Positions 12,842-48,444 of a stretch of 64,000 nucleotides of DNA are shown here, in pieces. The position numbers and the translations under genes were made by a program. The notes beneath the pieces were generated by a model. That model was not told where the DNA came from and did not search any database. It saw only the letters and a program-made list of their open reading frames with translations. The DNA comes from Raineyella sp. LH-20 (GTDB lineage Bacteria > Actinomycetota > Actinomycetes > Propionibacteriales > Propionibacteriaceae), in NCBI RefSeq assembly GCF_033110965.1, contig NZ_CP137003.1:496001-560000 (forward strand). The letters are read 5' to 3'. The stretch's first letter is position 1, and the number at the start of each line of letters is the position of its first letter.

Positions 12842-12965
12842 GTGAGCCGAATCTGGCGGCTCAGTATCCCGACAGCACAGCCGACGATCACCGATCCGCG
12901 CAATGACGCGGATCGTCGGCGCGGGCCGCACGCCCTCGGCGAGTGAGCCGCCAGATTCGGCTCAC
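12842..12965. repeat. 124-bp terminal-inverted-repeat element, copy 1 (inverted relative to copies 2 and 3)
   Basis: The terminal arms (12842-12863, beginning GTGAGCCGAATCTGGCGG, and 12944-12965) are perfect 22-bp inverted repeats. A nested palindrome around 12893-12914 (GATCCGCG, six bases, CGCGGATC) forms an inner stem. Read on the minus strand, the interior matches copy 3 (48321-48444) at the same offset from the end (GATCCGCGnCnTTnCGC). It lies between two convergent genes. No target-site duplication is visible. Confidence 0.85.
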
Positions 12966-13007
12966 TCGCGTCGACAGCTTCCGGCCGGGAGGCAAGCCCG
13001 GCTCGCC

Positions 13008-13526
13008 TCAGCGGCCGGTGCCGGCGTAGACCACGGCCTCGCCCTCGGCGTCCAGGCCGAACGCGGTGTGCGCCGCCCGGACCGCCGTCTCCAGGTCGTC
13101 CTGGTCGACGACCACCGAGATGCGGATCTCAGAGGTGGAGATCATCCCGATGTTGACGCCGGCCTGGGCCAGCGCCTTGAAGAACTTGGCCGTCACGCCC
13201 GGGTGGGAACGCATGCCGACGCCGATGACCGACACCTTGCCGATCTGGTCGTCGTAGAGCAGCTCCTGGAACTGCACGGATTCCTGGATGGACTTCAGGG
13301 TCTCGATCGCCTTGCGGGCGTCCTTGGTCGGCAGCGTGAAGGAGATGTCGGTGCGGGAGGTGTCCACCCGCGACACGTTCTGGACGATGATGTCGATGTT
13401 GATGTCGGCCTCGGCCAGCGCGGTGAAGATGGCCGCAGCACGGCCGACCTGGTCGGGGACGCCGACCACGGTGACCTTCGCATCGCCGCGCTCGTGGGCG
13501 ATGCCGGTGATCAGTGCCTGTTCCAT
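13008..13526 (-). CDS. lysC: Aspartate kinase beta subunit (internal in-frame start within lysC)
   Basis: A strong internal ribosome-binding site (AGAAAGGA, then CCTGGC) precedes the in-frame ATG at 13526, giving a 172-residue protein [17 protein letters not shown] that contains only the ACT regulatory domains. In Corynebacterium and Bacillus the same arrangement makes alpha2beta2 aspartokinase. The position matches the known beta start in LysC alignments as I recall them. Expression is inferred. Confidence 0.7.
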
Positions 13527-14282
13527 GCCAGGTCCTTTCTGGACGTCCTTGAGGTCCTTGACCCACGTGCCGGGCCTGTCGGTGAACGACGAGCGTACGT
13601 GGACGGCGACGTGCTCGCGACGGGCGTACTCCACGCAGCGCAGGTGGAGGATCTTGGCGCCGTTGGCCGCCATCTCCAGCATCTCCTCGTACGAGATCTC
13701 CGGGATCCGCCGGGCGCTGGGGACGATGCGGGGGTCGGCCGTGAAGACGCCGTCGACGTCGGAGTAGATCTCACAGTAGGCGGCGTCGAGGGCGGCGGCG
13801 AGGGCGACGGCGGTGGTGTCGGAGGCACCGCGGCCGAGGGTGGTGACGTCCTTGGTGTCCTGGGAGACACCCTGGAAGCCGGCGACGATGACGATGTTGC
13901 CGGCATCGAGCGCCTTCTCGATCCGACCCGGCGTGATGTCGATGATCCGGGCGTCACCGTGCTTGGCGGTGGTCAGGACCCCGGCCTGCGAACCGGTGTA
14001 GGAACGGGCGTCCGCCCCCAGGTCGCCGAGCGCCATCGCCAGCAGGGCAGCGGACTGGCGCTCCCCGGTGGTCAGCAGCATGTCCAGCTCGCGGGCCTTC
14101 GGCATCGGAGACACCTGCAACGCGAGGTCCATCAGCTCGTCGGTCGTGTCACCCATCGCCGAGATGACGACGACGACCTCGTTGCCCGCCTGCTTGGCAG
14201 CGAGGACCCGACGCGCCACCCGCTTGATGGCCTCGGCGTCCTCCACCGACGATCCGCCGTACTTCTGGACGATGCGGGGCAT
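13008..14282 (-). CDS. lysC: Aspartate kinase, alpha subunit
   Basis: 424 residues, the normal size for actinobacterial LysC (about 421). The start at 14282 is fixed by a near-perfect AAAGGAGG upstream and by [13 protein letters not shown], the conserved nucleotide-binding opening. Later kinase motifs ([49 protein letters not shown]) are intact. Two C-terminal ACT domains (from about residue 265) should bind Lys/Thr for feedback control. It phosphorylates aspartate, the first step toward lysine, threonine, methionine and diaminopimelate. The usual partner asd is not next to it. Confidence 0.96.
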
Positions 14283-14402
14283 GCGGCCTCCTTTGCGCGT
14301 TTTGAGTCGGAGCCACGATACCGGGCCGGCCAACGGACGGCACACCGATCCGTCATGCGGGTGGCCATCCGCTCCCCGAACGGCCGGGCTGCGGGCCGGC
14401 CG

Positions 14403-14822
14403 TCAGAGCAGGTCGATGCCCTCACCGTTGTCTCGCCCACCGTCGTCGTCCCCGTTGTCGCGCCCGCCGTCGTCGCCCTCACCGCCTTCGTCCTCGTCGG
14501 CGTCGTCCTCACAGTCATCGCCTGCCTGACCGCCCTGCAGATCCTCCGCGATGTCGCCGTACGCCGCCAGGACCTCTTCCACCTCGGGACTGGTGGCATG
14601 CACCGTCAGGCCGTCATCGCGCGCCTGGTCCAGACCGGCGCGGATCAACGTCGTCAACACCCCGTCGGTCGGCTGCCCGGTGCCGGCGGGTCCGACGACT
14701 GCACGGGGCATCTCGACGATCCCGCAGTTGACCTGGTAGTCGAGGAACCCGATCTCGGCGCCGTCGAGCAGGGCCTCCCACCGAGACCGATCAGGGTTGA
14801 AACGTACGCGTACGTCGGGCAT
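14403..14822 (-). CDS. Small GNAT-fold N-acetyltransferase-like protein with acidic tail
   Basis: 139 residues. The first 95 residues fit the short YidJ-like GNAT family (RFNPDRSRWEALLDGAEIGFLDYQV, then GVLTTLIRAGLDQARDDGLTVHATSPEVEEVLAAY): an acetyl-CoA-binding half-fold lacking a large substrate lobe. The last 40 residues are almost only Asp, Glu and Gly, an unusual acidic, presumably disordered tail. GGAGGAGC is placed well before the ATG. It is encoded 120 bp upstream of lysC on the same strand and could be co-transcribed. Substrate unknown. Confidence 0.75.
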   Translation of the reverse strand: MPDVRVRFNPDRSRWEALLDGAEIGFLDYQVNCGIVEMPRAVVGPAGTGQPTDGVLTTLIRAGLDQARDDGLTVHATSPEVEEVLAAYGDIAEDLQGGQAGDDCEDDADEDEGGEGDDGGRDNGDDDGGRDNGEGIDLL

Positions 14823-14891
14823 GCCAGCTCCTCCTCGTCGTCGTGGGATCTTGTGGGTGGCAACTCGAGCCAGGTCGGCCTGACGGTCGGG

Positions 14892-15764
14892 TCAGCGTTC
14901 GACGATGACGGCGGCCAGCTCTCCGACCTCGAGCCCGGCCGACGACGTGTTGGACATCGGCAACACCCCCGACCGGCCCAACGCCGTCCACGACAACTGC
15001 CAGTGATGCGTCGCCCTGATCGTGTAATCACCCGGCTCCGTATAGACATGACCACACGTCGGCGACGGAGACCCCGGCGGCCGCGCCCCCGCCACCCACG
15101 GCGTCGACACCCCACACGTCACCGTCGTCCCATCCCCCATCTCGAACGACGACGATTGATGACGAGCAACCATCTCCAGCGTGACCCCGTCAAGGGAAAC
15201 TGTCTGACTGGTCGTACTGTCTCCCTCCCACCACAGCCAGACCGGAAACCCGACCGCCAGCATGTTCCACTCATTCAACGACGGATCCGGCCCCACCCGC
15301 ACCGTCTGACCCGGCAACCGCAACATCGCCGACGCCTCCCGCGCCAGCACCGCCGGATCCACCGCCCCCGCCGATGGCGGATCCAACGGAACCACATTGT
15401 TCCACCGAAAATCCGACGAATCCGTCAACCCCAAATACGCCCGCTGATGCTCCAACAACCGCCGACGCAACTCCTCACCCGACACCGACGCCGGATCAAC
15501 ACCCGCCCGCCACCGTACAACGGACCACCCGCCGTCGGAGGACGGCTTTCCTGGCCCACTCGCACCAGTCCGAGATCCCGCCGAGATTCCACCGGACGAA
15601 CTACCGCCGCGGACAGTGCCGACGGCCGACTGCTCATCCGAAAGCCTCACCGACTGGCCGCCAGAGTAGTCCGAAAGGCCGGAGGATGCCTGGGCCAGGC
15701 CTACCCCCACGGCCAACCACAGCACGCATGCCGCAGCCGCGATCCCGCCAGATCTCAGTGACAC
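14892..15764 (-). CDS. Secreted or membrane-anchored protein with PKD-like region, function unknown
   Basis: 290 residues from the GTG at 15764, preferred because GAGGGGGAG lies just upstream and the start overlaps the stop of the preceding lipoprotein gene by a few bases. A longer in-frame ATG start at 15803 would overlap it by 49 bp. Residues 1-25 form a signal peptide or anchor (GGIAAAACVLWLAVGVGLAQA). A Ser/Gly-rich linker follows, then GDGTTVTCG and CGHVYTEPGDYTIRATHHWQLSW, which resembles PKD-type beta-sandwich repeats. Such proteins occur beside small lipoproteins in actinobacteria; function is unknown. Codon use (frequent third-position A/C such as CGA, ACA) differs from the flanking core genes and suggests transfer. 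Confidence 0.7.
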   Translation of the reverse strand: MSLRSGGIAAAACVLWLAVGVGLAQASSGLSDYSGGQSVRLSDEQSAVGTVRGGSSSGGISAGSRTGASGPGKPSSDGGWSVVRWRAGVDPASVSGEELRRRLLEHQRAYLGLTDSSDFRWNNVVPLDPPSAGAVDPAVLAREASAMLRLPGQTVRVGPDPSLNEWNMLAVGFPVWLWWEGDSTTSQTVSLDGVTLEMVARHQSSSFEMGDGTTVTCGVSTPWVAGARPPGSPSPTCGHVYTEPGDYTIRATHHWQLSWTALGRSGVLPMSNTSSAGLEVGELAAVIVER

Positions 15765-16339
15765 GACTCCCCCTCGGGCGATGTACCTTCGACGATTACC
15801 CACTGCCCGTCCACGCGGCGAAGGTCCAAAAGGACAACACCCCTGGTCCCGGTGCGAACAAAGTTGCCCTGCCGATCAATAATTTCCGATCTGGTCCCGT
15901 CCTCACAAGCCTTCAGCTGCAGCGAGCCCCCTGAGTAATTCATTCCATTCACATAAACGATATCCATTGGCCGACTGGAGGAAACTCCTTCAGAATAAGC
16001 TGACGCCAAGAATCCAGAGATGGCCTCAAGATAGGATCCCGAAGCAAGCCGCTCCATCGTCGGCGTAGGGGTCAGGCTTCCTCCGGCCTGAAGGAGCCGA
16101 TTCCGCTCCTTGGTGAACTCTCGATACACGAAGATCGCCTCTTCGTACGCCTCGGCCTCCTCAGCCTGCGACGCAGCCAACTCCGGCGTGCACGGAACGC
16201 CCGCCGGATCCGGCGTACACAAATACGTCGGCGTCGGACTCGGCGCCGCCCGCGACACACCACCACAGCCGGCCAACAGGCCCGCCGCACCGACCATCCC
16301 CCACGCCACTGTCAGCGTGCAGACACGACTTGGCACCAC
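15755..16339 (-). CDS. Small secreted lipoprotein, function unknown
   Basis: 194 residues from a GTG start with GGGGGATGA upstream. The signal peptide ends in the lipobox LLAGC with Cys25 as the lipid anchor. A Pro/Ser/Thr-rich linker follows, then a short helical segment (EEAEAYEEAIFVYREFTKERNRLL) and a compact C-terminal domain (GTRGVVLLDLRRVDGQWVIVE) of the cone-shaped NTF2/SnoaL-like type often seen in actinobacterial lipoproteins. The gene overlaps the start of the next secreted-protein gene, so the two are one translational unit and probably act together at the cell surface. Confidence 0.72.
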   Translation of the reverse strand: MVPSRVCTLTVAWGMVGAAGLLAGCGGVSRAAPSPTPTYLCTPDPAGVPCTPELAASQAEEAEAYEEAIFVYREFTKERNRLLQAGGSLTPTPTMERLASGSYLEAISGFLASAYSEGVSSSRPMDIVYVNGMNYSGGSLQLKACEDGTRSEIIDRQGNFVRTGTRGVVLLDLRRVDGQWVIVEGTSPEGESCH

Positions 16340-16599
16340 GTCTCATCCCCCTTGACTCGCGCTCGGCCCAGCCTGTCGTAGGCGTGGTCCACAAGAGAGC
16401 CCGGAATCGAGTTGTCCACAGGGAATGAGAGGCGTCTCACATCATCCACAAGCGCACCGGGCGCGCGGCAGTAAAAGGTCCAGGCGCGGTTCCCCCGACC
16501 GCCTCGTGACGTCGGTCCACCCTGGGCCCGTCCCATGCCCCGTGGTGCGCAGGAGCTGGGACGCTGAGAGTGGTCCACGCGGAGCAAGCCTTCCGTCAT
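16340..16599. other. Intergenic stretch with clustered DnaA-box-like 9-mers
   Basis: No convincing gene. Three DnaA-box-like sequences on the plus strand lie within 66 bp: TGGTCCACA (16385-16393), TTGTCCACA (16412-16420, perfect consensus) and TCATCCACA (16442-16450). A 95-codon frame crosses the region on the minus strand but has no recognisable family and overlaps the lipoprotein start. Confidence 0.4.
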
Positions 16600-17496
16600 T
16601 CAGGTCTTCCACGTGGTCGATCGACGCGCGACCTCGTAGATCGCGCTGATCTCGTGGCGGCCGAGCCGTGCCGACCGATTCTGCAGGTATCGGCCGAGGC
16701 TCCGGCGGGGCACGACAACGACAGCACCGTCCTCGGGCTGCTTCTTGACAGTGAAGCCCTTGTGCGCGCCCATCACCGCAATAACGCCGATAGTCGCAAC
16801 AGGGAAGCCAGCCCGCTCGGTGAGAAGGCGGGCCGCTCGTCGTGCCTCGTAGCGGCTGTTGCGAATGTAGGGAACGCGCTGCCCGTTCACCAGGAAGGTG
16901 TCTCCACCGACCCAGATCGATGCACGAGGATGGTTCTTTGCATTCACCGTGAATACACCGGGAGGTCCGATGACCACGTGGTCGATATCGGCGCCACAAT
17001 CCCCGACGCGCACGGCGTGCAGGACCCGCCACTCGGGGCCGAGCTTGGCAAGCTGCTCAGCGGTGGCCTGCTCACCATCAGCACCGATCCGCCAGGCGCG
17101 TTCATCGGTCCGCGCACCGACGAGACGGGAGAGCACGTGACGGAAGGGCCCTTGTGCCTCACGTGCGGCAAGCGCCCGCTGTCGTGCCGCAGCACCGGCC
17201 TGTGTGGCGCTGATGTCCTCCCACTGCGGCACCGATGTACCCGCAGGTGGCTCGACTGCGGTTGCGGCACCGATGGTCTCGGCAGGACTCACAGAGCCGT
17301 TCGTGGTGCCCACTTGCATCCTGGTCGCAAGGTGATCGCCAATCACCGTCTCCAGCAAGGGGAGGTTGCCCAGGTTGTCGGAGTGGTATTGCCCTGTCTT
17401 GAGGTCCAGATAGCCCAACGTGATCCCATCCGGCGACGCCGCATAGAGCCGCTCATGCCCATAGCGGGCCCATCTCCTCACAGTCCACTCGGCCAT
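16600..17496 (-). CDS. NERD (nuclease-related) domain protein
   Basis: 298 residues from the ATG at 17496, which has GGGGGGAG about 6 nt upstream; a TTG five codons earlier is less likely. The C-terminal half is a NERD domain: GADGEQATAEQLAKLGPEWRVLHAV, then CGADIDHVVIGPPGVFTVNAKNH, containing the Asp and Lys positions of the PD-(D/E)xK-like core, and ISAIYEVARRSTTW at the end. The N-terminal 100 residues are family-variable. NERD proteins are predicted DNA-processing nucleases, often in mobile or accessory loci. Its neighbourhood (lipoprotein, secreted protein, IS remnant) fits an accessory island. Catalytic competence is plausible but untested. Confidence 0.8.
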   Translation of the reverse strand: MAEWTVRRWARYGHERLYAASPDGITLGYLDLKTGQYHSDNLGNLPLLETVIGDHLATRMQVGTTNGSVSPAETIGAATAVEPPAGTSVPQWEDISATQAGAAARQRALAAREAQGPFRHVLSRLVGARTDERAWRIGADGEQATAEQLAKLGPEWRVLHAVRVGDCGADIDHVVIGPPGVFTVNAKNHPRASIWVGGDTFLVNGQRVPYIRNSRYEARRAARLLTERAGFPVATIGVIAVMGAHKGFTVKKQPEDGAVVVVPRRSLGRYLQNRSARLGRHEISAIYEVARRSTTWKT

Positions 17497-17589
17497 CCTG
17501 GCTCCCCCCAACGATCGATCGCGCCCCCAAGGTTCGGTGAGTCGGGCTCTTGGGGCTGCACAAGTTTCGAGTTCAATCTAGGCAAACGT

Positions 17590-17955
17590 CCGGAGAGTGT
17601 CAGTCGGGTCTGACACTGGTTCGCGTGGCGACGCGGGGCGGGTAGTCCACGCCCGCGGAGGCCCTTCGGGGTGGGCGCGGCGTGCTTCTTCTCCGAATGC
17701 GCACAGACCGATGTCGCTTCCAGGTCGATGACCAGCGAATCGGCGCCGTCGGGCGGAACGCCGGGGACGCTGCCCGGGCCAGACCCAGGTGGCCTCGCCG
17801 GCGGTCTTGCTGACGCGACCGCGGCCACCACACGGTCCGCATCCACGGCGAGCCGAGCGATCAGTCGTGGGACGCACGGATCGGAGGCGACCAGCCATAG
17901 CTGCCGGGTTCGTCACACAGTGTGGCGATGTCGCAAGGCAGTCCTCACCTAACGA
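17590..17955 (-). pseudogene. Degraded IS1380-family transposase fragment
   Basis: Translating the minus strand in pieces recovers recognisable IS1380 transposase segments in order: LGEDCLA, then (next frame) IATLCDEPGSYG, then LVASDPCVPRLIARLAVDADRV and GADSLVIDLEATSVCAHSEKKHAAPT. The last contains the catalytic-domain stretch that in intact enzymes reads close to DLDATLVTAHSEK. At least two frameshifts separate the pieces, and the N-terminal third and everything after the SEK region are missing. It is therefore a dead remnant, marking past transposon activity next to the NERD gene. Confidence 0.8.
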
Positions 17956-18380
17956 CACCGTGACAGCCAGGTCGCACCCGGTCCCCCATCCAGACCGTAC
18001 GCTTCGTATTCATTCCCGCACGGGCGACCGGGAGGGTATGCGTACCACGGGTACGGTCTGGCAGGGCGAGGGGGTCGATCCGCCACCTGAGGCGACACAC
18101 CCCCGCCCGGCCCGAGCCGGCCGAGCCGGTCACGACTACCTGCGGGCGCCCCGAGCGACCGCCTGGCGGAGTTGGACCGCGATCCACTCAGAGACGATCG
18201 AGATCGCCCAGGTGATCCGTACGATCTGCAACCGAGAGCCCGCAGCTGCCCTTCGCGCCGCCGTCAGTCACGCGCCCAGCTCCGGCATGAGCGCTCCCCG
18301 AGGCGCACGATTGCCGACCAGGCCGTCCACGCGGGGAGGGGTCCGTCCCCGGTCACCGCCACCGGCGGCAACCGGAGCAC
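17956..18380. other. Unassigned stretch between IS remnant and DUF1707 gene
   Basis: About 425 bp. I see no coding region with a plausible start, ribosome-binding site and recognisable product on either strand, and no repeat. It may be decayed flanking DNA of the IS remnant. Confidence 0.5.
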
Positions 18381-18384
18381 TGGG

Positions 18385-18390
18385 CATAAT
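18385..18390 (+). promoter_or_regulatory. Putative -10 box for a leaderless DUF1707 transcript
   Basis: CATAAT ends 7 nt before the ATG at 18398, the spacing expected if transcription begins at the start codon itself. Confidence 0.5.
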
Positions 18391-18397
18391 GGCCTCC

Positions 18398-18934
18398 ATG
18401 ACCAGCGACCCGGGCTCCGCCCACGAGCAGCCTCCCCTCCCGCGCATCGGCGACGCCGAACGCCAGGCGGCGGTGGACGAGCTGTCCGAGCACTATGTCG
18501 CCGGTCGGCTCGACGAGGCGGAGTTCAACCAGCGCATGGACACCGCCCTCCAGGCGCGTACGATCGCCGATCTGGTCCCGCTGTTCACCGATCTCCCGCC
18601 GATCAACCCGGCAGCCCCGTGGGCGGCCGCCCCTCTCCAGCGCCGCTCCGCCGTGCCGTACGTGTCCCGCAGCCAGGTCGTGCCGGCGCCCACGGCCCCG
18701 TCCTCGTCGGCCGTCGAGCCAGGGTGGGTGAACGTGTTGCGGGTCGTACGGCCCGTCATCTGGCCGGTCGCCATCGGTCTGATCATCTTCACCAACATCC
18801 CGACCGGGGTGCTCATCGTGGCCGCCATCATCCTGACGATCGTGAGCAGCCGCGTGTTGGGTGACAAGAAGCACAGCCCCGGGCAGCTTCCTCACGGCTC
18901 CGACGACCGGCGGCAGCTGCCGCCCGGGCGCTGA
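18398..18934 (+). CDS. DUF1707 domain membrane protein
   Basis: 178 residues from the ATG at 18398; an ATG three codons earlier sits inside the probable -10 box and is rejected. The DUF1707 motif is clear at residues 15-65: RIGDAERQAAVDELSEHYVAGRLDEAEFNQRM, then ARTIADLVPLFTDLP. A proline/alanine-rich linker leads to a hydrophobic double helix (VVRPVIWPVAIGLIIFTNIPTG, VLIVAAIILTIV) and a basic tail. DUF1707 proteins are widespread, poorly characterised actinobacterial proteins thought to be membrane-associated regulators. It is convergent with ileS. Confidence 0.88.
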   Translation: MTSDPGSAHEQPPLPRIGDAERQAAVDELSEHYVAGRLDEAEFNQRMDTALQARTIADLVPLFTDLPPINPAAPWAAAPLQRRSAVPYVSRSQVVPAPTAPSSSAVEPGWVNVLRVVRPVIWPVAIGLIIFTNIPTGVLIVAAIILTIVSSRVLGDKKHSPGQLPHGSDDRRQLPPGR

Positions 18935-18988
18935 CCTCCCCAGCCGACTCCCAACCTTCTCTGATCCGTAGTCAGTGCGTCCGCACGC

Positions 18989-19032
18989 CACCGGAGGGCA
19001 TACGCGGCCACGCCACGTACGCCCCTCCGGTG
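18989..19032. terminator. Bidirectional hairpin between DUF1707 gene and ileS
   Basis: CACCGGAGGG (18989-18998) pairs perfectly with CCCTCCGGTG (19023-19032). It lies between the ends of two convergent genes, so it can terminate both. Confidence 0.6.
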
Positions 19033-19076
19033 ACCTCAGCCCCGCTGCCGACCTCAGTCCCGGCGGCCGGCCGATC

Positions 19077-22554: not shown

Positions 22555-22561
22555 GGTCAGC

Positions 22562-25669: not shown

Positions 25670-25756
25670 TCTCTCCCGCCCGGCTCTCTTCCGCCCGGCT
25701 CTCCTCCGCAGCTCTCTTCCGCTCGGCTCTCTTCCGCCCGGCTCTCTTCCGCTCCG
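25670..25756. repeat. Tandem repeat of about 15 bp between adh and nmo
   Basis: Roughly six imperfect copies of CCCGGCTCTCTTCCG run head to tail immediately after the dehydrogenase stop. It is non-coding and purine/pyrimidine-skewed (pyrimidine-rich on the plus strand). Confidence 0.85.
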
Positions 25757-30350: not shown

Positions 30351-30445
30351 TGCGGTGGGACAGACAGCGTCCGCAGGGTCGAGGTTCCTGGCTCGTACGC
30401 TGGGCGGACGCAGATCGTCCGGGCACACAGACGTCCGGGCGCACA

Positions 30446-30538
30446 AAGGGGTCCCCCGCGTACCCGACAGAGCTCACTTACCCTTGCTGCCTTCCGACCC
30501 TGGGGGAGTTGGGCGAGGTAACGCCACACGGGGGACCT
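30446..30538 (-). ncRNA. ffs: Signal recognition particle RNA (4.5S, small bacterial type)
   Basis: The universally conserved apical tetraloop/asymmetric-loop core is visible (GGGTCGGAAGGCAGCAAGGG, 30503-30484), and the ends close as a long helix (AGGTCCCCCG at the 5' end against CGGGGGACC at the 3' end). Length is about 93 nt. It pairs with Ffh to target membrane proteins. Position beside dnaX is common. Ends are estimated from the promoter and the terminal stem. Confidence 0.92.
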
Positions 30539-30544
30539 CGGTCC

Positions 30545-30883: not shown

Positions 30884-30971
30884 GGAGGATTCGCCTAGAG
30901 GCCTATGGCGCTCGCTTGGAAAGCGGGTTGGGTTCACGCCCTCACGAGTTCGAATCTCGTATCCTCCGCCA
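30884..30971 (+). tRNA. tRNA-Ser, anticodon GGA
   Basis: 88 nt with CCA encoded. Acceptor arms GGAGGAT and ATCCTCC pair fully; the long variable arm (typical of class II tRNA-Ser), TTCGAATC T-loop and anticodon GGA (30918-30920) in the loop CTTGGAAAG are clear. Reads UCC/UCU codons. Confidence 0.97.
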
Positions 30972-35514: not shown

Positions 35515-41052
<5,538 letters not shown>

Positions 41053-41370
41053 AGGTATCTCCTCGTCCGCGGCAGGCCGGCCCCGCCGCTCTCCTGGACG
41101 AGACTTACATCCGGAGGGCGTCTGCCGCGAGGTGCCGCGACGAACTCGGGGCTGTTGGCCCGTGCCGTCCAAATCGACCGGAAATCCTTTGGTTGGTTCA
41201 CACAACGGCCGCAGCGTCGACCCCACCGACCGGTGTCGATTTCTGGCACAGCGGCCGGGCCTCCGCCGACCACCCCCAGCTCGCCGACGACGGTCACATC
41301 TTCCTAACGGGTGGGTGGGCGCACGGTGCTCGCCCACCATCTGCTGGATCCGACACGTAACGTAGGGGAT
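41053..41370. other. Divergent intergenic region of the carboxylase and a small conserved gene
   Basis: 318 bp with no gene. On the plus strand TAACGT (41358-41363) ends 7 nt before the GTG at 41371 and fits a leaderless -10. The carboxylase promoter must lie here too but no strong match was found. Confidence 0.45.
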
Positions 41371-41664
41371 GTGATTTTCAAGCGCGTGGGTGATGGACGT
41401 CCCTACCCGGACCACGGGTACGTCCAGAAGCAGTGGGCCGCCATCCCTCCGCACCAGGTGCGCCTCGACCAGCTGGTCACGACCAAGCGGACACTGGACC
41501 TCGAGGCTCTCCTGGAGGAGGATTCCACCTTCTACGGGGACCTGTTCGCCCATGTCGTGTCCTGGCACGGCGAGCTCTATCTGGAGGACGGCCTGCACCG
41601 GGCGCTCCGCGCCGCACTCCAGCAGCGCCAAACGATGCACGCCCGCGTGCTGGAACTCCGCTAG
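41371..41664 (+). CDS. Conserved actinobacterial small protein, ParB-/VapB-like annotation in relatives
   Basis: 97 residues from a GTG that directly follows a -10-like TAACGT by 7 nt. The sequence IFKRVGDGRPYPDHGY, QVRLDQLVTTKRTLDLEALL, DSTFYGDLFAHVVSWHGELYLED and HRALRAALQQRQTMHARVLEL is highly conserved in actinobacteria as I recall it, where automated pipelines sometimes call it a VapB-type antitoxin. No toxin gene is adjacent, and the pattern (GELYLEDGLHRA) looks more like a ParB-nuclease-fold remnant. Real function unknown. It precedes a LytR_C gene by 39 bp and they are probably co-transcribed. Confidence 0.8.
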   Translation: MIFKRVGDGRPYPDHGYVQKQWAAIPPHQVRLDQLVTTKRTLDLEALLEEDSTFYGDLFAHVVSWHGELYLEDGLHRALRAALQQRQTMHARVLELR

Positions 41665-41703
41665 GATCCGACCACTCTCGACCACCACCAGGAGGAACTC
41701 GCG

Positions 41704-42240
41704 ATGGACGCCCAGAAGCTGTGGCGGACCGTCCGTACGCCTCTCGTCCTGGTGGTGCTGGTCGCCCTCGTCGCACTGGGCACCCTGTGGGCCTGGCAGG
41801 AGATCCTCAAACCCACCCCCAAGGCCCCGCCGCCACCGTGCGTCCCGCAGACCCTGCAGGACGGCAAACTGCTGTCCCAACAGGTCACGGTCGCCGTGGA
41901 CAACGCCGGCAGCAAGCAGGGCCTGGCCGGTCAGGTCGCCCGATCGCTGACCGCCCAGAAGTTCGTCGTGTCCGGCACGGGCAACTCCACCAGCATCGTC
42001 ACCCAGGACGTCGTGGTGGTCGGCTACGCCGTCGACGCGCCCGAGGTGAAACTGGTCGCCGCACAGTTTCCCAAGGCTGAAGTGCGGGCTGATGCGACGA
42101 TGACCGACCACGCTGTCCGGGTGGTCGTCGGCGACCAGTTCGCCGGGATGAAGGACAAGGCCGCCGCCGCCATCGCCGTCGACGTCCCGTCGATCTGTCT
42201 GCCGGCGCTGCCCTCGGCGTCCGCCTCGCCCAGCGCCTGA
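41704..42240 (+). CDS. LytR C-terminal-domain membrane protein (VirR-like)
   Basis: 178 residues with AGGAGG 8 nt before the ATG. One N-terminal transmembrane helix (LVLVVLVALVALGTLWAW) is followed by a Pro-rich linker and a LytR_C domain (VTVAVDNAGSKQGLAGQVARSL, FVVSGTGNSTS, VVVGYAVDAPEVKLVA). The domain faces outside the membrane. In mycobacteria a protein of this build (VirR) affects envelope permeability and vesicle formation; here the role is inferred as envelope maintenance. The C-terminal tail is Ser/Ala-rich and low complexity. Confidence 0.85.
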   Translation: MDAQKLWRTVRTPLVLVVLVALVALGTLWAWQEILKPTPKAPPPPCVPQTLQDGKLLSQQVTVAVDNAGSKQGLAGQVARSLTAQKFVVSGTGNSTSIVTQDVVVVGYAVDAPEVKLVAAQFPKAEVRADATMTDHAVRVVVGDQFAGMKDKAAAAIAVDVPSICLPALPSASASPSA

Positions 42241-42307
42241 GCCGTCGGGGCCGACCGACCGATCCGCCGCCTAGGCTGGGCGGCAAGCCCCTACGGAAGG
42301 ATCCGGC

Positions 42308-43135
42308 ATGTCTGCTCCCGTCGCCATCGTCACCGGCGGCTCGTCCGGCATCGGTGAGCTCACCGCCCACCAGCTGAAGGAACGCGGCTACACGGTCTAC
42401 GCGGCGGCCCGACGGACCGACCGGATGAAGGGCCTCCAGCGGGCCGGCATCCACACCCGGGCACTGGACCTCACCGTCGAGCGATCGATGCAGGACCTCG
42501 TCGACGCGGTGATCGCCGAGCAGGGCCGGATCGACCTGCTGATCAACAACGCCGGCTTCGGCGCCTTCGGGGCGGTCGAGACCGTGCCGATGCGCGACGC
42601 CCGCGCCCAGTTCGAGGTGAACGTCTTCGGACTCGCCCGGATGACCCAGCTGGTGCTCCCGCACATGCGGAAGGCGGGCACCGGTCGGGTGGTCAACGTC
42701 TCCTCGATCGCCGGCTACGTCGCCGAACCGTACGGCGCCTGGTACCACGCCTCCAAGCACGCCGTGGAGGGGCTCTCGGACTGTCTGCGGATGGAGATGA
42801 AGCCCTTCGGCGTACGCGTCATCCTGGTCGAGCCGGGCCCGGTCCGCACCGAGTGGAACGCGATCGCCGCCGACTCGCTGGTCAAGTCGTCCAGGGGCAC
42901 GGCGTACGCCAAGCATGCCAAGGCCACCCGCCGGGCGTTGCGGGCGATGAATTCCGGAGTCCTCGCCGTGCCGGCCTCCCGCGTCGCCGAGGTGATCATC
43001 GAGGCCGCCACCGACGACAAGCCCTCGGCCCGCTACCCCGTCGGGCGCCGCGCCGCTGCGATCATCACCCTCGCCAAATATCTGCCCACCCGCGCGGTGG
43101 ACGCGATCACCGGACTGCTCTACTTCGCCCGCTGA
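42308..43135 (+). CDS. Short-chain dehydrogenase/reductase
   Basis: 275 residues, GGAAGGA before the ATG. Classical SDR pattern: cofactor loop TGGSSGIG (9-16), NNAG, catalytic Ser in NVSSIAG and YHASK (Tyr and Lys). AARRTDRM after the second strand (Arg-Arg instead of an acidic residue) favours NADP(H). C-terminal helices are slightly hydrophobic (AIITLAKYLPTRAVDAITGLLYF), as in membrane-associated SDRs acting on lipids or steroids. Substrate unknown. Confidence 0.9.
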   Translation: MSAPVAIVTGGSSGIGELTAHQLKERGYTVYAAARRTDRMKGLQRAGIHTRALDLTVERSMQDLVDAVIAEQGRIDLLINNAGFGAFGAVETVPMRDARAQFEVNVFGLARMTQLVLPHMRKAGTGRVVNVSSIAGYVAEPYGAWYHASKHAVEGLSDCLRMEMKPFGVRVILVEPGPVRTEWNAIAADSLVKSSRGTAYAKHAKATRRALRAMNSGVLAVPASRVAEVIIEAATDDKPSARYPVGRRAAAIITLAKYLPTRAVDAITGLLYFAR

Positions 43136-43164
43136 GGCAGCGCGTCGCCCGGTGCCGACGGATC

Positions 43165-43288
43165 ATGAGCCGAATCTGACATCTCGGCTCCCCGCACGCG
43201 CTTGGCCGCTGCCAAGAAGCGCGCCATTCCGCCGATCGATCGACCGAGCACTCCCCCGCGGTCGATCGAGATGCCAGATTCGGCTCAC
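43165..43288. repeat. 124-bp terminal-inverted-repeat element, copy 2
   Basis: Same overall length as copies 1 and 3. The arms (43165-43186, 43267-43288) match each other at 20 of 22 positions and share ATGAGCCGAATCTG/CAGATTCGGCTCAC with the family; the inner ends are changed to ATCTCG/CGAGAT on both sides, a compensatory pattern that preserves pairing. The core GCGCCATTCCGCCGATCG aligns with copy 3 at the same offset. An additional inner stem GATCGACCG/CGGTCGATC is present. Confidence 0.85.
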
Positions 43289-43313
43289 GTCTTCGGGTCA
43301 TCGTCGGGGCGCA

Positions 43314-43389
43314 GTGGGTGAGTCCGGCGCAGTGGGTGAGTCAGGCCCAGGGGATGAGTCAGGCCCAGGGGATGAGTCAGGCCCAGGGG
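43314..43389. repeat. 18-bp tandem repeat, four units
   Basis: Units at 43314-43331, 43332-43349, 43350-43367 and 43368-43385, of the form GGGGATGAGTCAGGCCCA, plus four extra bases. It lies directly after repeat-element copy 2 and is non-coding. Confidence 0.92.
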
Positions 43390-43635
43390 CACGTCTTCCG
43401 CCTGGTGGCGAATCCCCACGGGCATGTTGCCCCGTCCGCGCATCTCCAGTCGGTCCCCCGGAGACACACGACGGGGGCTGTCAGACGGTGCGGATCCCGA
43501 ACTCAGCGCAGGCTCACCCACTCATGCGTTGTGCTCATGCGTTCGTGCGTGAAGACACACACCAACGCATGAACGCAACGCATAACCGACGTCCTCTGCG
43601 GGGACGAGCACAGGCAGCCGACGATCCACCTCACC

Positions 43636-43762
43636 AGACCACCGGGACCACCCGGACCACCCGGACCACCCGGACCACCGGGACCTGAATCCCGAACCCA
43701 GAACGCCGAAACACCGACCACCTGAACCTTGAACCGCGAACCCCGAACCCCGAACCCCGACC
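43636..43762. repeat. Short tandem repeats (9 bp and 7 bp)
   Basis: A run of about five ACCACCCGG-type 9-mers at 43636-43685, then a separate run of CGAACCC-type 7-mers at about 43733-43762. Simple-sequence DNA in the same gap as the 18-bp repeat; no gene is supportable from 43289 to 43840. Confidence 0.8.
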
Positions 43763-43862
43763 GCCTGAACGCCAGAACCCCATCACCCGGGCCTCCGACC
43801 ACCGGAGCTCCCCGGGCTCGATGGTGGGTTGATCGGAGAGCACGGGTGCAATGATCGAGGGC

Positions 43863-44276
43863 ATGGACAACGCGTTCGTCGATCCGGCGGTGCACCCTGA
43901 CCAGCGCTCGATCCTCGACGCGCTCGGGGATTCCGCCGCGGTGTGGAGCGCCGTTACCGACGTGTTCTCTGCTCAGGGGGCAGAGGTCGCGTGGCGGCAC
44001 TATCGCGACGGAGGCTGGCTCGCCAAGGCCACGAAGAAGGGGAAGACGGTGGCGTGGCTGAGCGTTCACCCGGGGGCGCTCCGGGTCGCGTTCCACTTCG
44101 CCGAGCGGCTCCGCCCGAAGGTGCTGGGGAGTGATTCGCTCGGGGATCGACTGCGAGACCGTATCGCCGATCTCGAGCCTGCAGGGCACTTGTTCTCCGT
44201 GCCCATCGACGTACGTACGCCGCAAGACGTTGAGGAGGTCAGCACCCTCCTGCGGCTCAGGCTCGCCCTGAGGTGA
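43863..44276 (+). CDS. DUF3788-like small protein
   Basis: 137 residues from the ATG at 43863; an AATGAT hexamer about 8 nt upstream fits a -10 of a leaderless message, and the ATG at 43851 lies inside that hexamer. The pattern WRHYRDGGWLAKATKKGKTVAWLSVHPGALRVAFHF followed by LEPAGHLFSVPIDVRTPQD resembles DUF3788 (small alpha/beta proteins of unknown biochemical role). Cytoplasmic, no membrane helix. The region is less rich in strong codon bias than the core genes, consistent with accessory status. Confidence 0.72.
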   Translation: MDNAFVDPAVHPDQRSILDALGDSAAVWSAVTDVFSAQGAEVAWRHYRDGGWLAKATKKGKTVAWLSVHPGALRVAFHFAERLRPKVLGSDSLGDRLRDRIADLEPAGHLFSVPIDVRTPQDVEEVSTLLRLRLALR

Positions 44277-44425
44277 GCACCCGCACCGCGAGGGGCGGAT
44301 GAACGTCCATACAGGGGCCGAGCACTCAGCTGATCAGGAGGATCATCGGTGTCCGAGCAGCCTGCCCCGCGACGGTGCACCGGTTCCGGGCCCCGGGCGG
44401 CCACTGCAGGGTGCACGATGGGGCC

Positions 44426-44689
44426 GTGCCCGGCGATACCGATGACCTCCCGCTGAAGATGCGTCTTCTGGCGGTCGAAGTCCTGACCACTGATTCATGC
44501 ACGGATTGTCACCCAGACATACGCGACGCCATCTCTCTGGCGACCGAGTTGCTCGTCGCTGACAGGGACTCCCCGGCCACCGTGGAGGTCGCGTGCCTCG
44601 ACACCACGTCGTCCTTCGACGAAGCTCGCCGCCTGCTGGCGGAGCGATGGCGGCGGTTCCGCTGGTCCCACCGCGTCGCTCACGACTGA
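44426..44689 (+). CDS. Hypothetical small protein
   Basis: 87 residues from the GTG at 44426. CACGAT ends 6 nt upstream, the leaderless spacing; a longer frame from 44375 is possible. Sequence KMRLLAVEVLTTDSCTDC, then DIRDAISLATELLVADRDS and VEVACLDTTSSFDEARRLLAERW looks like a small alpha/beta domain with a CxxC pair, but I do not recognise a family. The end abuts the next gene's reading region, and the two may be an operon. Confidence 0.5.
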   Translation: MPGDTDDLPLKMRLLAVEVLTTDSCTDCHPDIRDAISLATELLVADRDSPATVEVACLDTTSSFDEARRLLAERWRRFRWSHRVAHD

Positions 44690-44739
44690 TGCGCACGATG
44701 CGACCAACCGGTGACGGCGACGGCCGCGGGGAGGATGTG

Positions 44740-45312
44740 ATGGCCACGGCCCTGTTGGTCGGGGGCCGGGTCATCCTGATCGCTGGGACCATCGCGGTCC
44801 CGGTGTGCCGCCTCACCAAACCGCTATGGCGCTCCGCCCCCTTGGCTGCGGGAGCTCTCCCGGACCACTGGATCCCCAACTCCACCTTTGCGCTGTCGTT
44901 CCTCCTGGCGCTGCTGCTGCCCCTGCTCGTACTCCCGGTGGGACCCGCCGACCTGGCCGTCCGGATGGGTTCTGACGTGGGCGTCCGTACGGTCCTCGGG
45001 CTGCGGAAGGTGTCCGTCCCGTCGCTGCGAGGCGTCGGCGTTGTCCTCCCGTCGTTCAACTGGGACACGCACCTGCTGGTTCTGCGTGATGCACGGCACC
45101 GCGTGGTCATCGTCTGGCTGGAGCTCGACGGCCCGGACTGGATACATCGTGAATGCCCCGAGCTCGAGGGGGAGCACCTTGTCTCCGGCGACCGAGCGAC
45201 CTGGGGTCGGCGGGCCCTGCGGCGCGGCATCGGGTGGCTGGTGGTGGTGGCGTTCGGCGCGGTGGCGTTCGCGCTGTTCGTCCTTCTCTGCTTACTGGCG
45301 GGCCTCGTGTGA
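44740..45312 (+). CDS. Hypothetical membrane protein
   Basis: 190 residues from the ATG at 44740, which has GGGGAGG 5 nt upstream; an ATG at 44689 overlapping the previous stop (TGATG) is the alternative. Hydrophobic helices at the N-terminus (LVGGRVILIAGTIAVPV), near residue 50 (FALSFLLALLLPLLVLPV) and at the C-terminus (GWLVVVAFGAVAFALFVLLCLLAGLV), with a soluble middle part (VRTVLGLRKVSVPSLRGVGVV, HRVVIVWLELDGPDWIHREC) resembling a PH-like beta domain. No family assigned. Confidence 0.65.
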   Translation: MATALLVGGRVILIAGTIAVPVCRLTKPLWRSAPLAAGALPDHWIPNSTFALSFLLALLLPLLVLPVGPADLAVRMGSDVGVRTVLGLRKVSVPSLRGVGVVLPSFNWDTHLLVLRDARHRVVIVWLELDGPDWIHRECPELEGEHLVSGDRATWGRRALRRGIGWLVVVAFGAVAFALFVLLCLLAGLV

Positions 45313-45386
45313 CGGGCTCCACCACCGGCGAAATCCCTGACAGCCGGACAGCCCGGACCCTCCACCGAGGATCCGGGCTGCTGAGA

Positions 45387-45474
45387 TGGCGGTGACGGTG
45401 GGATTTGAACCCACGGTAGGTCTCCCTACACTCGCTTTCGAGGCGAGCTCCTTCGGCCGCTCAGACACGTCACC
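45387..45474 (-). tRNA. tRNA-Ser, anticodon CGA
   Basis: 88 nt with encoded CCA. Acceptor arms GGTGACG/CGTCACC, D-loop, anticodon stem CTCGC/GCGAG with loop CTCGAAA (anticodon CGA, reads UCG), long class II variable arm and TTCAAATCC T-loop all fold. Second serine tRNA of the window. Confidence 0.97.
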
Positions 45475-45744
45475 GTCGACAGACATTACACGAAGGTGGC
45501 CGCGGGGTGCCAATCGGGCGAACCGGCCGACGCCGCACCCCGGCACGCGGGATCATGGCCAGCCAGAGACACCCTGTGATCGCCCGGACGTGGCCCCACG
45601 AGCAGGATCCGATCGGCGCAGTCCCGATCACGGCCCCGATCGCCGTCCCGATCACGGCCCCCGAGCGACGTGGCCCACGGTGCCATCATCATGGCCGGCA
45701 CGCTTCATCACGGGCGGCACGCTTCGGCGCGACACCCACCCCGA
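45475..45744. other. Intergenic stretch between tRNA-Ser(CGA) and tadA
   Basis: No gene seen. Contains a direct duplication of GTCCCGATCACGGCCCC (around 45621-45662) and several short palindromes of CGGGAT/ATCCCG type. Confidence 0.5.
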
Positions 45745-46224
45745 TCAGTCCCGGCGGCCCCCGAAGAAGTCCAGCAGCGGCACGGCACACTCCTCGGCCA
45801 TGAAGCCGCCGGTCACCACGGGCCGGTGATTGAGCCGCGGGTCGCGTACGACGTCCCACAGGGAGGCGACGGCACCGGCCTTGGGGTCGTACGCCCCGAA
45901 GACCAGGCGGTCGATCCGGGCGGCGACGATCGCCCCGGCGCACATCGTGCAAGGCTCGAGGGTGACCACCAGAGTGCAGCCCTCCAGGCGCCACTCCCCC
46001 ACCGCCCGGGCGGCCGCACGGATCGCGACGATCTCGGCGTGGGCGGTCGGGTCGCCGTACCGTTCTCGTTCGTTGTGCCCGCCGGCGAGAAACTCACCGG
46101 ACGGATCGAGCACGACCGCGCCGATCGGTACGTCCCCGTGGGCCGGCGCGAGCCGGGCCTCGTCGAGGGCGCGCAGCATCGGGCCGCGCCATCCCCCGGG
46201 GGGAACCGGCCGCCCGACAGACAT
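45745..46224 (-). CDS. tadA: tRNA adenosine(34) deaminase TadA
   Basis: 159 residues, family size. Zinc and catalytic residues: HAE (His62, Glu64) and PCTMC (Cys92, Cys95); [11 protein letters not shown] and GGHNERE are TadA-typical. It converts A34 to inosine in tRNA-Arg(ACG). Its partner gene, the conserved acidic TadA-associated protein, lies 8 bp upstream on the same strand. A tRNA gene lies downstream on the same strand, past a 270-bp gap. Confidence 0.95.
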
Positions 46225-46232
46225 CGGGGCGT

Positions 46233-46862
46233 TCAGTCCTCGAACTCCTCCTGGACGGTGGACCGCAGCTGCGGGCCCATCCCGATCCGGTCGGCGAGCT
46301 GGAACAGCGCCTCGTCACTGGTCGTGTCGAAGTCCTCGGCCAACTGCTCGAGGTCGAAATCACCCACGCCGAGGTCCCGCAGGATCTCGGAGTCACCGAT
46401 CGGTACGACGTCGTCCTCGTCCTCACCGTCGGTGGGGATCTCGTCGATGCCGAGGTAGTCGAGGATGTCGCGGGCGATCGGCCACTCGTCGGCGGCGGCG
46501 CCGTCGGACAGGAAGACCTGGACGATCGCGCCGCGGACCCGGACGATGACGAAGACCTCCTCGACCAGCGACAGCATCCCGATCGCCCCCGCCTCACCGG
46601 GCAGCCGGCGCAGGTGGTTGATCATCTCGTCGAGGTCGTTGGCCATCTCGAGGTCGAGGGCGACGACGACGGGATGGCCGTCCTCGCGATAGGCCGCGAC
46701 GACGAAGTCGACGTCCTCGTCGGTGGCGTCGTCCAGTTCCTCATAGTCGCCGTCATCGTCCTCGTCGATGTCGTCGTCCTCGAACTGGTCGTCATCGTCG
46801 TCGAGCTCGTCCTCGGAATCGAGGTCGAGGTCGTCGAGTTCCTCGTCGTCGTAGTCAGACAC
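46233..46862 (-). CDS. TadA-associated acidic protein
   Basis: 209 residues from the GTG at 46862, chosen because AGGAGG lies 7 nt upstream; an ATG nine codons earlier sits right at the probable transcript start. The N-terminal 45 residues are almost entirely Asp/Glu. Then [41 protein letters not shown] and [20 protein letters not shown] form the conserved domain found next to tadA in actinobacteria. Function unknown; fixed neighbourhood implies a role in tRNA deamination or its control. Confidence 0.9.
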
Positions 46863-46943
46863 GCCAGCCTCCTGATCGCCCATGGCCACCCTATGTTCTC
46901 AGAGATCCAGCAACGGCGACAGTCGAGCGGACGGCTGGCTACC

Positions 46944-46991
46944 GGTGTCACATCGGGACCGGGCGGCCCGGTGCGGCGCCGATGTGACACC
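46944..46991. promoter_or_regulatory. Nested perfect palindromes upstream of upp
   Basis: Outer 13-bp arms GGTGTCACATCGG (46944-46956) and its exact complement (46979-46991) enclose an inner perfect palindrome ACCGGGC-G-GCCCGGT (46958-46972). The right outer arm overlaps the CACCCT hexamer that ends 7 nt before the upp GTG. It could be an operator or a hairpin at the 5' side of two divergent genes. Confidence 0.55.
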
Positions 46992-47000
46992 CTGAGGGGC

Positions 47001-47642
47001 GTGGAACTTCATGTGGTCGATCATCCCCTGGTGGCACACAAGCTGACCCTGCTGCGCGACGCCTCGACCGCCTCGCCGGTCTTCCGTCAGCTCACCGACG
47101 AGTTGGTGACCCTGTTGGCGTACGAGGCGACGCGCAACGTACGGGTCGAACCGTGCACCGTGCAGACGCCGGTCCGCGAGGCGCAGGGCGTACGTCTCTC
47201 CACGCCGCGCCCACTGGTGGTGCCGATCCTGCGCGCCGGCCTCGGGATGCTGGGCGGGATGACCCGGCTGCTGCCGACCGCCGAGGTCGGCTTCGTCGGG
47301 ATGGCCCGCAACGAGGAGACGCTGCAGCCGGTGACGTACGCCGAGCGGCTCCCCGCCGACCTGTCCGGGCGGCAGTGCTACGTGCTGGACCCGATGCTGG
47401 CGACCGGCGGTTCGCTGGCGGGGACCATCCAGTTCCTGGTGAACCGGGGTGCCGACCACGTGACCGCGATCTGCCTGCTCGCGGCCCCGGAGGGCGTCGA
47501 GCACGTCCGTACGATCACCGAGGGGTTGGGGGTGCCCTGCCACCTGGTCGTCGCCGCGATGGACGAGCGGCTCAACGAGCACGGCTACATCGTGCCCGGG
47601 CTCGGGGATGCCGGCGACCGGCTCTACGGCCTGGCGAACTGA
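47001..47642 (+). CDS. upp: Uracil phosphoribosyltransferase
   Basis: 213 residues from the GTG at 47001; the longer upstream frame crosses the divergent gene and is spurious. Family features: [36 protein letters not shown]-type segment ([12 protein letters not shown]), the PRPP loop [13 protein letters not shown], and the uracil-binding C-terminus [22 protein letters not shown]. It makes UMP from uracil and PRPP. A leaderless start is likely. Confidence 0.96.
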
Positions 47643-47725
47643 CCCGGCGGGACGTACGGGGCGCGAGGTGACCCGGGCGATCGAGACCTAATCGTCATCT
47701 TCGCGCGTCCCACGGTGGCTCAAAA

Positions 47726-47741
47726 TGTGACTAAGGTCACG
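47726..47741 (+). promoter_or_regulatory. CRP/GlxR-like site upstream of the four-helix membrane protein
   Basis: TGTGA-CTAAGG-TCACG fits the CRP-family consensus TGTGA-N6-TCACA with one mismatch. It lies about 42 bp upstream of the start codon at 47783. Confidence 0.45.
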
Positions 47742-47782
47742 CTATCTGGTGACGGGTCCACTCAGTCCTCAAGGAGGACGTC

Positions 47783-48217
47783 ATGACCACCGCCGTCAAA
47801 TACCTCGCCCGCCTCATCGCCCTGCTCGTCGTCGTGCAAGCCGCCGTGGTCGTCTGGGGGGTGGCAGAGGAGATCCGGTTCCAGGAGGCCAACCCCGGCG
47901 CCCAGGTGCCGTTCCCGGTCGGCGCCATGCTCCACGGCACGATCGGGATGTACGTCATCCCGGCCGTCGCCCTGATCCTGTTCATCCTGACCCTGATCGC
48001 CCGCCGGGCCCGCCTGTGGGCCGGTCTCGCACTGGTGTCCGCAGTCCTCCAGGTCGCGGTCGGCCTCGGCGGCATCCTCCTCAGCCCCTACCTCGGGTTG
48101 ATCCACGGGGTCAACGCGTTCGTCCTCGCCGGCCTCGCCATGATGACGGCACGGGCGATCGACCCGTCCCAGGCGACGACCGCCCCGGCACGTCGGCCGA
48201 CCCAGGCGGTCGGCTGA
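47783..48217 (+). CDS. Four-helix membrane protein, possible heme binding
   Basis: 144 residues with AAGGAGG 7 nt upstream. Four transmembrane helices: IALLVVVQAAVVVWGV, MLHGTIGMYVIPAVALILFILTL, LWAGLALVSAVLQVAVGLGGILL and LIHGVNAFVLAGLAMM. Histidines at the start of helices 2 and 4 (HGTIG, IHGVN) are placed as in small b-type cytochrome four-helix bundles, suggesting (inference) heme ligation; DUF6220-like. A convergent gene at 48569-48964 has the same plan. Confidence 0.75.
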   Translation: MTTAVKYLARLIALLVVVQAAVVVWGVAEEIRFQEANPGAQVPFPVGAMLHGTIGMYVIPAVALILFILTLIARRARLWAGLALVSAVLQVAVGLGGILLSPYLGLIHGVNAFVLAGLAMMTARAIDPSQATTAPARRPTQAVG

Positions 48218-48227
48218 TCATCGACGT

Positions 48228-48318
48228 ATGGCCATCACCCCGACAGGCCATGGCCATCACCCCGACGGGCCGTCACCCCGACGGGCTATCGCCTCACCCC
48301 GCCAGGCCATCACCCGAC
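48228..48318. repeat. Imperfect tandem repeats before repeat-element copy 3
   Basis: About five copies of a CCATCACCCCGACGGG-type unit of roughly 16-20 bp. With the element and the following GTCGACxGCTCGGCC-type repeats (about 48445-48520), the whole 350-bp gap between two convergent genes is repetitive. Confidence 0.75.
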
Positions 48319-48320
48319 GG

Positions 48321-48444
48321 GTGAGCCGAATCTGGCGGCCCACCTCTCCGGCACCGGTCCCGGCCTCCGGCGATCCGCGCCGTTCCGCAGATCGGCGAAC
48401 CACTCCCCACGGTCGGCCGCACCGAGCCGCCAGATCCGGCTCAC
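48321..48444. repeat. 124-bp terminal-inverted-repeat element, copy 3
   Basis: Arms begin GTGAGCCGAATCTGGCGG (48321) and end CCGGCTCAC (48444), same length as copies 1 and 2. The core GCGATCCGCGCCGTTCCGC matches copy 1 (other strand) and copy 2 at an identical offset, about 48 bases from the left end. It lies between two convergent genes. Confidence 0.85.

What the first reader, a model, noticed from the sequence alone, without database searches (positions are those of the whole stretch)
12842..48444. A 124-bp inverted-repeat element family with three copies of identical length
Three elements (12842-12965, 43165-43288, 48321-48444) are each exactly 124 bp, bounded by 22-bp inverted repeats starting GTGAGCCGAATCTGGC. 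They share a core (GCGCCnTTCCGCnGATCG type) at the same offset of about 48-74 bases; copy 1 is inverted relative to the others. In copy 2 both arms changed together (ATCTCG/CGAGAT), which keeps base pairing and argues for selection on a folded RNA or cruciform. All three lie at gene 3' ends, two between convergent genes. It could be a MITE-like element, a REP-type repeat or a bidirectional terminator/RNA family. I know of no named family with this sequence.
Basis: seen in the sequence. Interest (0 to 1): 0.78.

Follow-up and report, generated by a model that had tools for sequence, protein, structure and literature searches.

The report
Paired-arm DNA signposts at gene ends
Bacteria of the genus Raineyella carry a small family of symmetric DNA elements between genes, whose two ends and middle are kept while the filler between them is free to change as long as its length stays fixed, which points to an unknown protein complex that grips the DNA at three points.

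Summary
The genome (3.63 Mb, genus Raineyella) has 14 copies; three sister species hold nine more full copies and one half copy. Searches of 147 family and 394 class genomes gave no credible copy outside the genus. Each element is one dyad: arm, spacer, 22-bp palindromic core, spacer, arm. Spacers look random (31.4% identity, shuffled 30.8%) but have fixed length: arm tip to core centre is 59-61 bp in 37 of 46 halves and 50 in 7, an 11-bp step of about one DNA turn. In one sister all 8 arms carry the same changed base, which suggests a changed binding protein. No target-site duplications, Rfam match in the elements or REP transposase were found. Best reading: a genus-specific composite protein-binding element at gene ends, closest in layout to REP dimers (BIME-1). 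The protein and its role (architecture, insulation or roadblock) are inferred, not shown.

The parts
12842..12965 (-). Element copy 1 (E2), 124 bp, inverted relative to the other two by its core; between a 500-aa ORF (+, stop 12800) and aspartate kinase (-, end 13008)
12842..12863 (+). copy 1 left arm (22 bp)
12893..12914 (-). copy 1 core, 22-bp palindrome at the element dyad
12944..12965 (-). copy 1 right arm (22 bp)
43165..43288 (+). Element copy 2 (E3), 124 bp; 3' of an SDR oxidoreductase gene (42308-43135 +)
43165..43186 (+). copy 2 left arm
43216..43237 (+). copy 2 core at the dyad
43267..43288 (-). copy 2 right arm
48321..48444 (+). Element copy 3 (E4), 124 bp; between convergent ORFs of 144 aa (+, end 48217) and 173 aa (-, end 48569)
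48321..48342 (+). copy 3 left arm
48372..48393 (+). copy 3 core at the dyad
48423..48444 (-). copy 3 right arm

Best explanation
The elements are composite, dyad-symmetric binding sites on double-stranded DNA. A sequence-specific protein of the genus, not identified here, probably binds both arms, and the same or a second protein binds the palindromic core. Arms and core must sit at a set rotation on the helix, so the spacer sequence is free but its length is fixed or changes by about one turn. The resulting looped or wrapped complex sits mainly at gene ends. Its likeliest job is to act as an architectural anchor, insulator or roadblock between transcription units, comparable in layout to BIME-1 (two inverted REPs around an IHF site). 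Shown: family, symmetry, free spacers of fixed length, 11-bp step, persistence at orthologous loci, species-wide arm change. Inferred: the protein, the complex and the role.
For: Dyad: core and arms share one centre. Spacers: pairwise identity 31.4% against 30.8% in shuffles, 52 of 200 shuffles at least as high; arm and core blocks 79.1% (the nine 124-bp own copies only). Length: of 46 halves in 23 full copies, 32 are 61 bp, 4 are 60, 1 is 59, 7 are 50, and 2 (74, 69) belong to one copy. At the aspartate kinase locus the element is 124 bp here and 113 bp in a sister, one half exactly 11 bp shorter. Orthologous persistence: 4 of 14 copies (E2, E5, E6, E10) sit beside homologous neighbours in a sister; for E2 (left half only), E5 and E6 the spacer halves compared in register are 29-32% identical, the random level. 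Trans factor: GAGCC in 27 of 28 arms here, GAGCG in 8 of 8 arms of sister G001, including loci E2 and E5. Arms occur almost only as pairs: 26 of 28 matches to GAGCCGNATCTGNC lie in the 14 elements.
Against: No binding protein was found. One copy (G002b, 145 bp, halves 74/69) breaks the length rule; its arms carry tandem duplications of 14 and 8 bp. E1 (60/61), E10 (61/60), E12 (59/60) and G003b (60/61) are off by 1-2 bp. E10 and its orthologue keep visibly similar spacers around a long hairpin (interior z -5.6), so one copy may be under RNA or cruciform constraint. The right arm of copy 1 can fold on its own into a 12-bp stem. Copy number varies from 2 full copies to 14 among the four species, odd for an essential architectural system. 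Convergent placement is called for 7 of 14 copies, against 9 of 30 gaps listed in the window, three of the nine being element gaps: no strong enrichment. Two of three G003 copies seem to lie at gene starts. At many loci no separate terminator hairpin was found.
Confidence: 0.55

Rival explanations
1. Old MITE-like transposon remnants: the arms are terminal inverted repeats of a lost transposase, and their ends are kept because they were needed for past movement.
For: Size, 22-bp inverted ends and intergenic location match prokaryotic MITEs (passages of PMC10969869). Copies differ between species; E3 and E4 were not detected in three sisters. In three copies (E12, G002b, G001a) an arm supplies the stop codon of the neighbouring ORF.
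Against: No flush direct repeat of 3 bp or more at any of 14 copies. Interiors are unrelated even within one genome while the core and both half-lengths are kept. No other element with these ends: the 2 of 28 pattern matches outside the 14 copies are single. Neutral decay would not spare arms and core alone (inference).
Confidence: 0.15
2. A structured RNA or bidirectional terminator: transcripts from either side fold through the arms and stop or stabilise the message.
For: Mostly 3' of genes; the arms can pair and whole elements fold better than shuffled sequence (mean z -5.55). Copy 1's right arm alone forms a 12-bp stem. In a simple scan several loci show no separate strong hairpin.
Against: No covariation in variable arm columns and no excess of paired cells in the whole proposed fold (79.8% against 78.8%, 45 of 500 shuffles as high; one of five measures, further pair types, was reached by only 14 of 500). 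Interior structure is not conserved. E5 and its orthologue have a separate conserved 17-bp hairpin beside the element. A random interior of fixed length is not expected of a terminator (inference). No Rfam match in the elements.
Confidence: 0.15
3. A site for a site-specific recombinase of the arm-type/core-type kind (lambda integrase logic), the core being the crossover site.
For: Two arm sites in inverted orientation around a short palindromic core with a variable centre, in fixed phase. The parallel with lambda sites is recalled. A third tyrosine recombinase (354 aa, XerC-like below the family cut-off) lies in this genome and, 88% identical and in a largely syntenic region, in G003, whose arms resemble those here.
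Against: That recombinase has no close relative in G001 or G002 (best 37-38%, Xer-level matches), although G001 has crisp arms, and relatives at 46-48% occur in 3 family genomes in which the profile reported no element. No arm lies within the 18-kb stretches around it. No recombinase was noticed beside any of the 14 copies. Copies persist at orthologous loci and the core centres differ between copies, which would hinder recombination between them.
Confidence: 0.08

Closest known systems
REP dimers / BIME-1 (bacterial interspersed mosaic elements)
   Same: Two inverted imperfect palindromes around a linker that carries a protein site (IHF in BIME-1), in intergenic space, mostly between co-directional or convergent genes; [quoted passage not shown]
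   Different: No GTAG/CGTC tag seen beside the palindrome, no Y1/RAYT transposase in 4 of 4 Raineyella genomes, 14 copies where REPs usually exceed 100 per genome (PMC2817692 abstract), only 2 of 28 arm matches unpaired, a conserved palindromic core of its own and length steps of 11 bp.
Prokaryotic MITEs (ERIC, Correia, RUP)
   Same: Short, terminal inverted repeats, intergenic, copy number varies among relatives (passages of PMC10969869).
   Different: Interior not shared between copies, no target duplications found, no cognate element found, fixed half-lengths.
Mycobacteriophage stoperators
   Same: Dispersed binding sites in an actinobacterial setting at which a repressor terminates transcription elongation (start of the abstract of PMC9283540, listing).
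   Different: Asymmetric phage sites bound by a monomeric repressor (title and abstract); here three-part symmetric chromosomal sites. An analogy of function only.

Membership tests
REP / BIME | imperfect palindromic units arranged as inverted pairs | tested here: met
   The commonest arm is TGAGCCG-N7-CGGCTCA and arms face inward in all 14 copies
REP / BIME | GTAG or CGTC tag beside the palindrome | tested here: not met
   The 10-bp flanks of 12 copies printed show no shared tag (by inspection)
REP / BIME | cognate RAYT (Y1_Tnp) transposase in the genome | tested here: not met
   PF01797 in 0 of 4 Raineyella genomes, in 5 of 14 control genomes
MITE | terminal inverted repeats on a short element | tested here: met
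MITE | target-site duplication | tested here: not met
   0 of 14 with a flush repeat of 3 bp or more at any of four boundary offsets; old copies may lose them (PMC10969869)
MITE | copies share interior sequence | tested here: not met
   spacer identity at random level in the nine 124-bp copies; only the 22-bp core is shared
structured RNA family | covarying base pairs | tested here: not met
structured RNA family | transcribed as a discrete RNA | not testable with these tools
   no RNA data
intrinsic terminator | short G+C-rich hairpin followed by T run | tested here: inconclusive
   arm pair encloses about 80 nt and no T run follows in the window copies; separate hairpins at some loci, none found at others

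The most novel reading that the evidence does not exclude
Raineyella has its own sequence-specific chromosome-organising or transcription-insulating system: an unknown protein assembles a phased three-point complex on about 3 to 14 dispersed dyad sites, and its recognition sequence has diverged between species together with every site in the genome.
Probability: 0.35. Interest if true: 0.75.

Novelty: new variant of a known kind. Interest (0 to 1): 0.58.

Why it matters
Dispersed palindromic repeats are usually explained as decaying mobile DNA or RNA hairpins. Here free spacers with a fixed, turn-wise quantised length and arms that change together across a genome give a sequence-only signature of selection for a DNA-protein assembly. 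If true, it points to an undescribed actinobacterial DNA-binding system that ordinary pulldowns can find, and gives a test that could be applied to other orphan repeat families.

Tried and rejected
RNA stem covariation: rejected for the arms. MITE with target duplication: none. RAYT-driven REP: no Y1_Tnp. Rfam: in the window at gathering scores only SRP RNA and two tRNAs; in the 14 loci at E up to 1 only a tRNA and a weak mir-324 match of E 0.06, both outside the elements. Phage or plasmid origin: copy 1 gave 0 matches in 50,697 phage records and one weak partial match (E 7e-3, core side) in 72,556 plasmid records; 0 paired arms in viral contigs. Exact paired arms: 1 of 57 relatives, the own genome. 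Weak family matches (12 genomes outside the genus, best E 5e-4) and one class match (G511, E 1.4e-5) are taken as chance: G511 reads as coding sequence with no 10-bp inverted repeat nearby; of the 12 family matches I read only one (G154).

Tyrosine recombinase as binder: at first judged by eye; on checking a third recombinase is shared with G003 but not with G001 or G002, so it does not follow the element. The consensus put the G001a core off centre (53/69); the leave-one-out matrix puts it at 61/61 (11.4 against 3.5 bits). That matrix was built from own copies at centres taken, so only sister copies are fully independent. The half copy's core scores below zero even at its best place, 61 bp.

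Literature: a search for four arm strings found 1 paper with one string, unrelated by title and abstract; a keyword search for actinobacterial intergenic repeats found none; eight papers mention Raineyella and genome, none on such repeats by title. 'Not described' rests on these calls and this library only. A search on parS spacing found nothing. Among its 120 matches only the Raineyella locus had a partner arm with 1 mismatch; one other had a 2-mismatch partner (L042, Acidobacteriota, not followed).

Full report
What is there. The window lies in a single-contig chromosome of 3,632,335 bases. The three elements are present as described. The arm pattern GAGCCGNATCTGNC occurs 28 times in the chromosome, 0 times in the reversed control; 26 of the 28 lie in 14 inward-facing elements. 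Lengths are 124 bp (9 of 14), 123 (2), 121 (1) and 102 (2). A sequence profile of the family finds the 14 copies at E 8e-16 or better and nothing else below E 0.02 (the profile was built from them).

Relatives. The profile finds copies in all three other Raineyella genomes searched: 4 in G001 (124, 124, 113, 102 bp), 2 full (124, 145 bp) and one half copy in G002, and 3 in G003 (124, 123, 124 bp). Of 147 family genomes, 16 had a match at E 0.01; 4 are Raineyella and the other 12 are weak (best E 5e-4), of which I read only one. Of 394 class genomes only the own genome and one chance match in apparent coding sequence passed E 1e-4. Both large searches used stricter filters that lose weak matches.

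Anatomy. Aligned by core orientation, three blocks are conserved: left arm, central 22-bp palindrome (about GATCCGCGCCATTGCGYGGATC) and right arm. The core's dyad is the dyad of the whole element. In the nine 124-bp own copies, spacers are 31.4% identical pairwise, against 30.8% in shuffles (52 of 200 at least as high), while blocks are 79.1%. With a leave-one-out core matrix, the 46 halves of 23 full copies measure 61 bp (32), 60 (4), 59 (1), 50 (7), and 74 and 69 (one copy whose arms carry tandem duplications). The 102-bp copies are short by 11 bp on both sides, the 113-bp copy on one side only. The core matrix was trained on the own copies, so the nine sister copies are the independent test: eight of nine put the core at 60-61 or 50 from each tip.

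Evolution. Four of 14 copies have an orthologous element beside homologous neighbours in a sister: E2 and E5 in G001, E10 and E6 in G002 (only loci that carry an element were compared, with 1.5-kb flanks). For E2 (left half), E5 and E6 the spacer halves compared in register are 29-32% identical, as random, although neighbouring DNA is 83-87% identical at E2 (G001) and 86% over 1,452 bp at E6; E10 keeps more similarity. Element length is unchanged at E5 and E6 and changed by exactly 11 at E2, while distances to flanking genes differ (E2: 42 and 43 bp against 68 and 88; E5: 228 and 115 against 19 and 104). In G001, 8 of 8 arms read GAGCG where 27 of 28 arms here read GAGCC. A change shared by every arm of a genome is what a changed binding protein would cause; independent compensating changes in RNA stems would differ locus by locus. 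That inference is mine. E3 and E4 were not detected in three sisters. Because the own copies' spacers show no relatedness, recent copying is unlikely, and loss in sisters is the simpler reading; this is not proven.

RNA or DNA. In the six inner arm pairs tested, 75.0% of cells pair against 74.7% after shuffling, and the whole proposed fold shows no excess of paired cells (79.8% against 78.8%, 45 of 500 shuffles as high; one further measure, pair types, was reached by 14 of 500). Interiors fold only slightly better than shuffled sequence (mean z -0.83 and -1.10), with E10 an exception at -5.6; whole elements fold well because the arms are complementary (mean -5.55). A separate conserved 17-bp hairpin lies beside E5 and its orthologue, so the element is not the only terminator candidate there; at many other loci a simple scan finds no other strong hairpin, which leaves a termination role open.

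Context. By codon-position G+C gene calls, checked in part with NCBIfam and Pfam, all 14 copies lie 3' of at least one gene (E8 at 347 bp): 7 between convergent genes (E1, E2, E4, E5, E10, E13, and E11 across a wide gap), 6 between co-directional ones (E6 with a tRNA), and E3 uncertain. Convergent gaps are 9 of 30 listed in the window, three of them the element gaps, so enrichment is modest at best. Two of three G003 copies seem to lie at gene starts. Neighbours have no common function (aspartate kinase, rplI, topA, clpB, recO, transporters). In three copies (E12, G002b, G001a) the neighbouring ORF's stop codon lies in the arm.

The protein. None was identified. A third tyrosine recombinase of this genome is 88% identical in G003, in a largely syntenic region, but has no close relative in G001 or G002 and no arm near it; its distribution does not follow the element. 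No Y1_Tnp protein was found in the four genomes.

Mechanism. The parsimonious reading is a protein-DNA assembly needing arms and core in fixed rotational phase. An 11-bp step is about one turn of B-DNA (established knowledge). The layout equals that of BIME-1, two inverted REPs around an IHF site (PMC2817692, passages), and REP dimers can keep spacer length without sequence (PMC3733652, passages). The tag and transposase that mark those families are missing here, so I do not file it as a REP. Architecture, insulation and roadblock remain undecided; I favour an architectural or insulating role at gene ends.

Noticed in passing
window 43319-43389, 48228-48526, 25670-25752, 58446-58550, 58956-59023: Short tandem repeats (period about 7-43, a different unit at each locus) lie close beside many of the 14 elements in this genome and in other stretches of the window; in the eight sister loci scanned none lies within 250 bp of the element except the arm duplication itself in L177.
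   Followed up: partly
L220 (G002:C1:499200-503300), 450-3815 +: In a sister the aspartate kinase intergenic region holds a 1121-aa ORF (resembles an NAD-glutamate dehydrogenase, recalled, not searched); no arm pair or core was found there.
   Followed up: partly
L208 (G002:C1:1226246): Half element: one arm and a very weak core at the expected 61 bp, second arm missing; a tyrosine-recombinase fragment lies about 1.3 kb away.
   Followed up: no
L223 195-1256 (+) = G000:C1:2955894-2956955: Third tyrosine recombinase (354 aa), 88% identical in G003, absent at that level from G001 and G002; relatives at 46-48% in three other family genomes.
   Followed up: partly
window 30444-30540 (-), 30884-30968 (+), 45390-45474 (-): Small SRP RNA and two tRNA genes; ordinary.
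   Followed up: no
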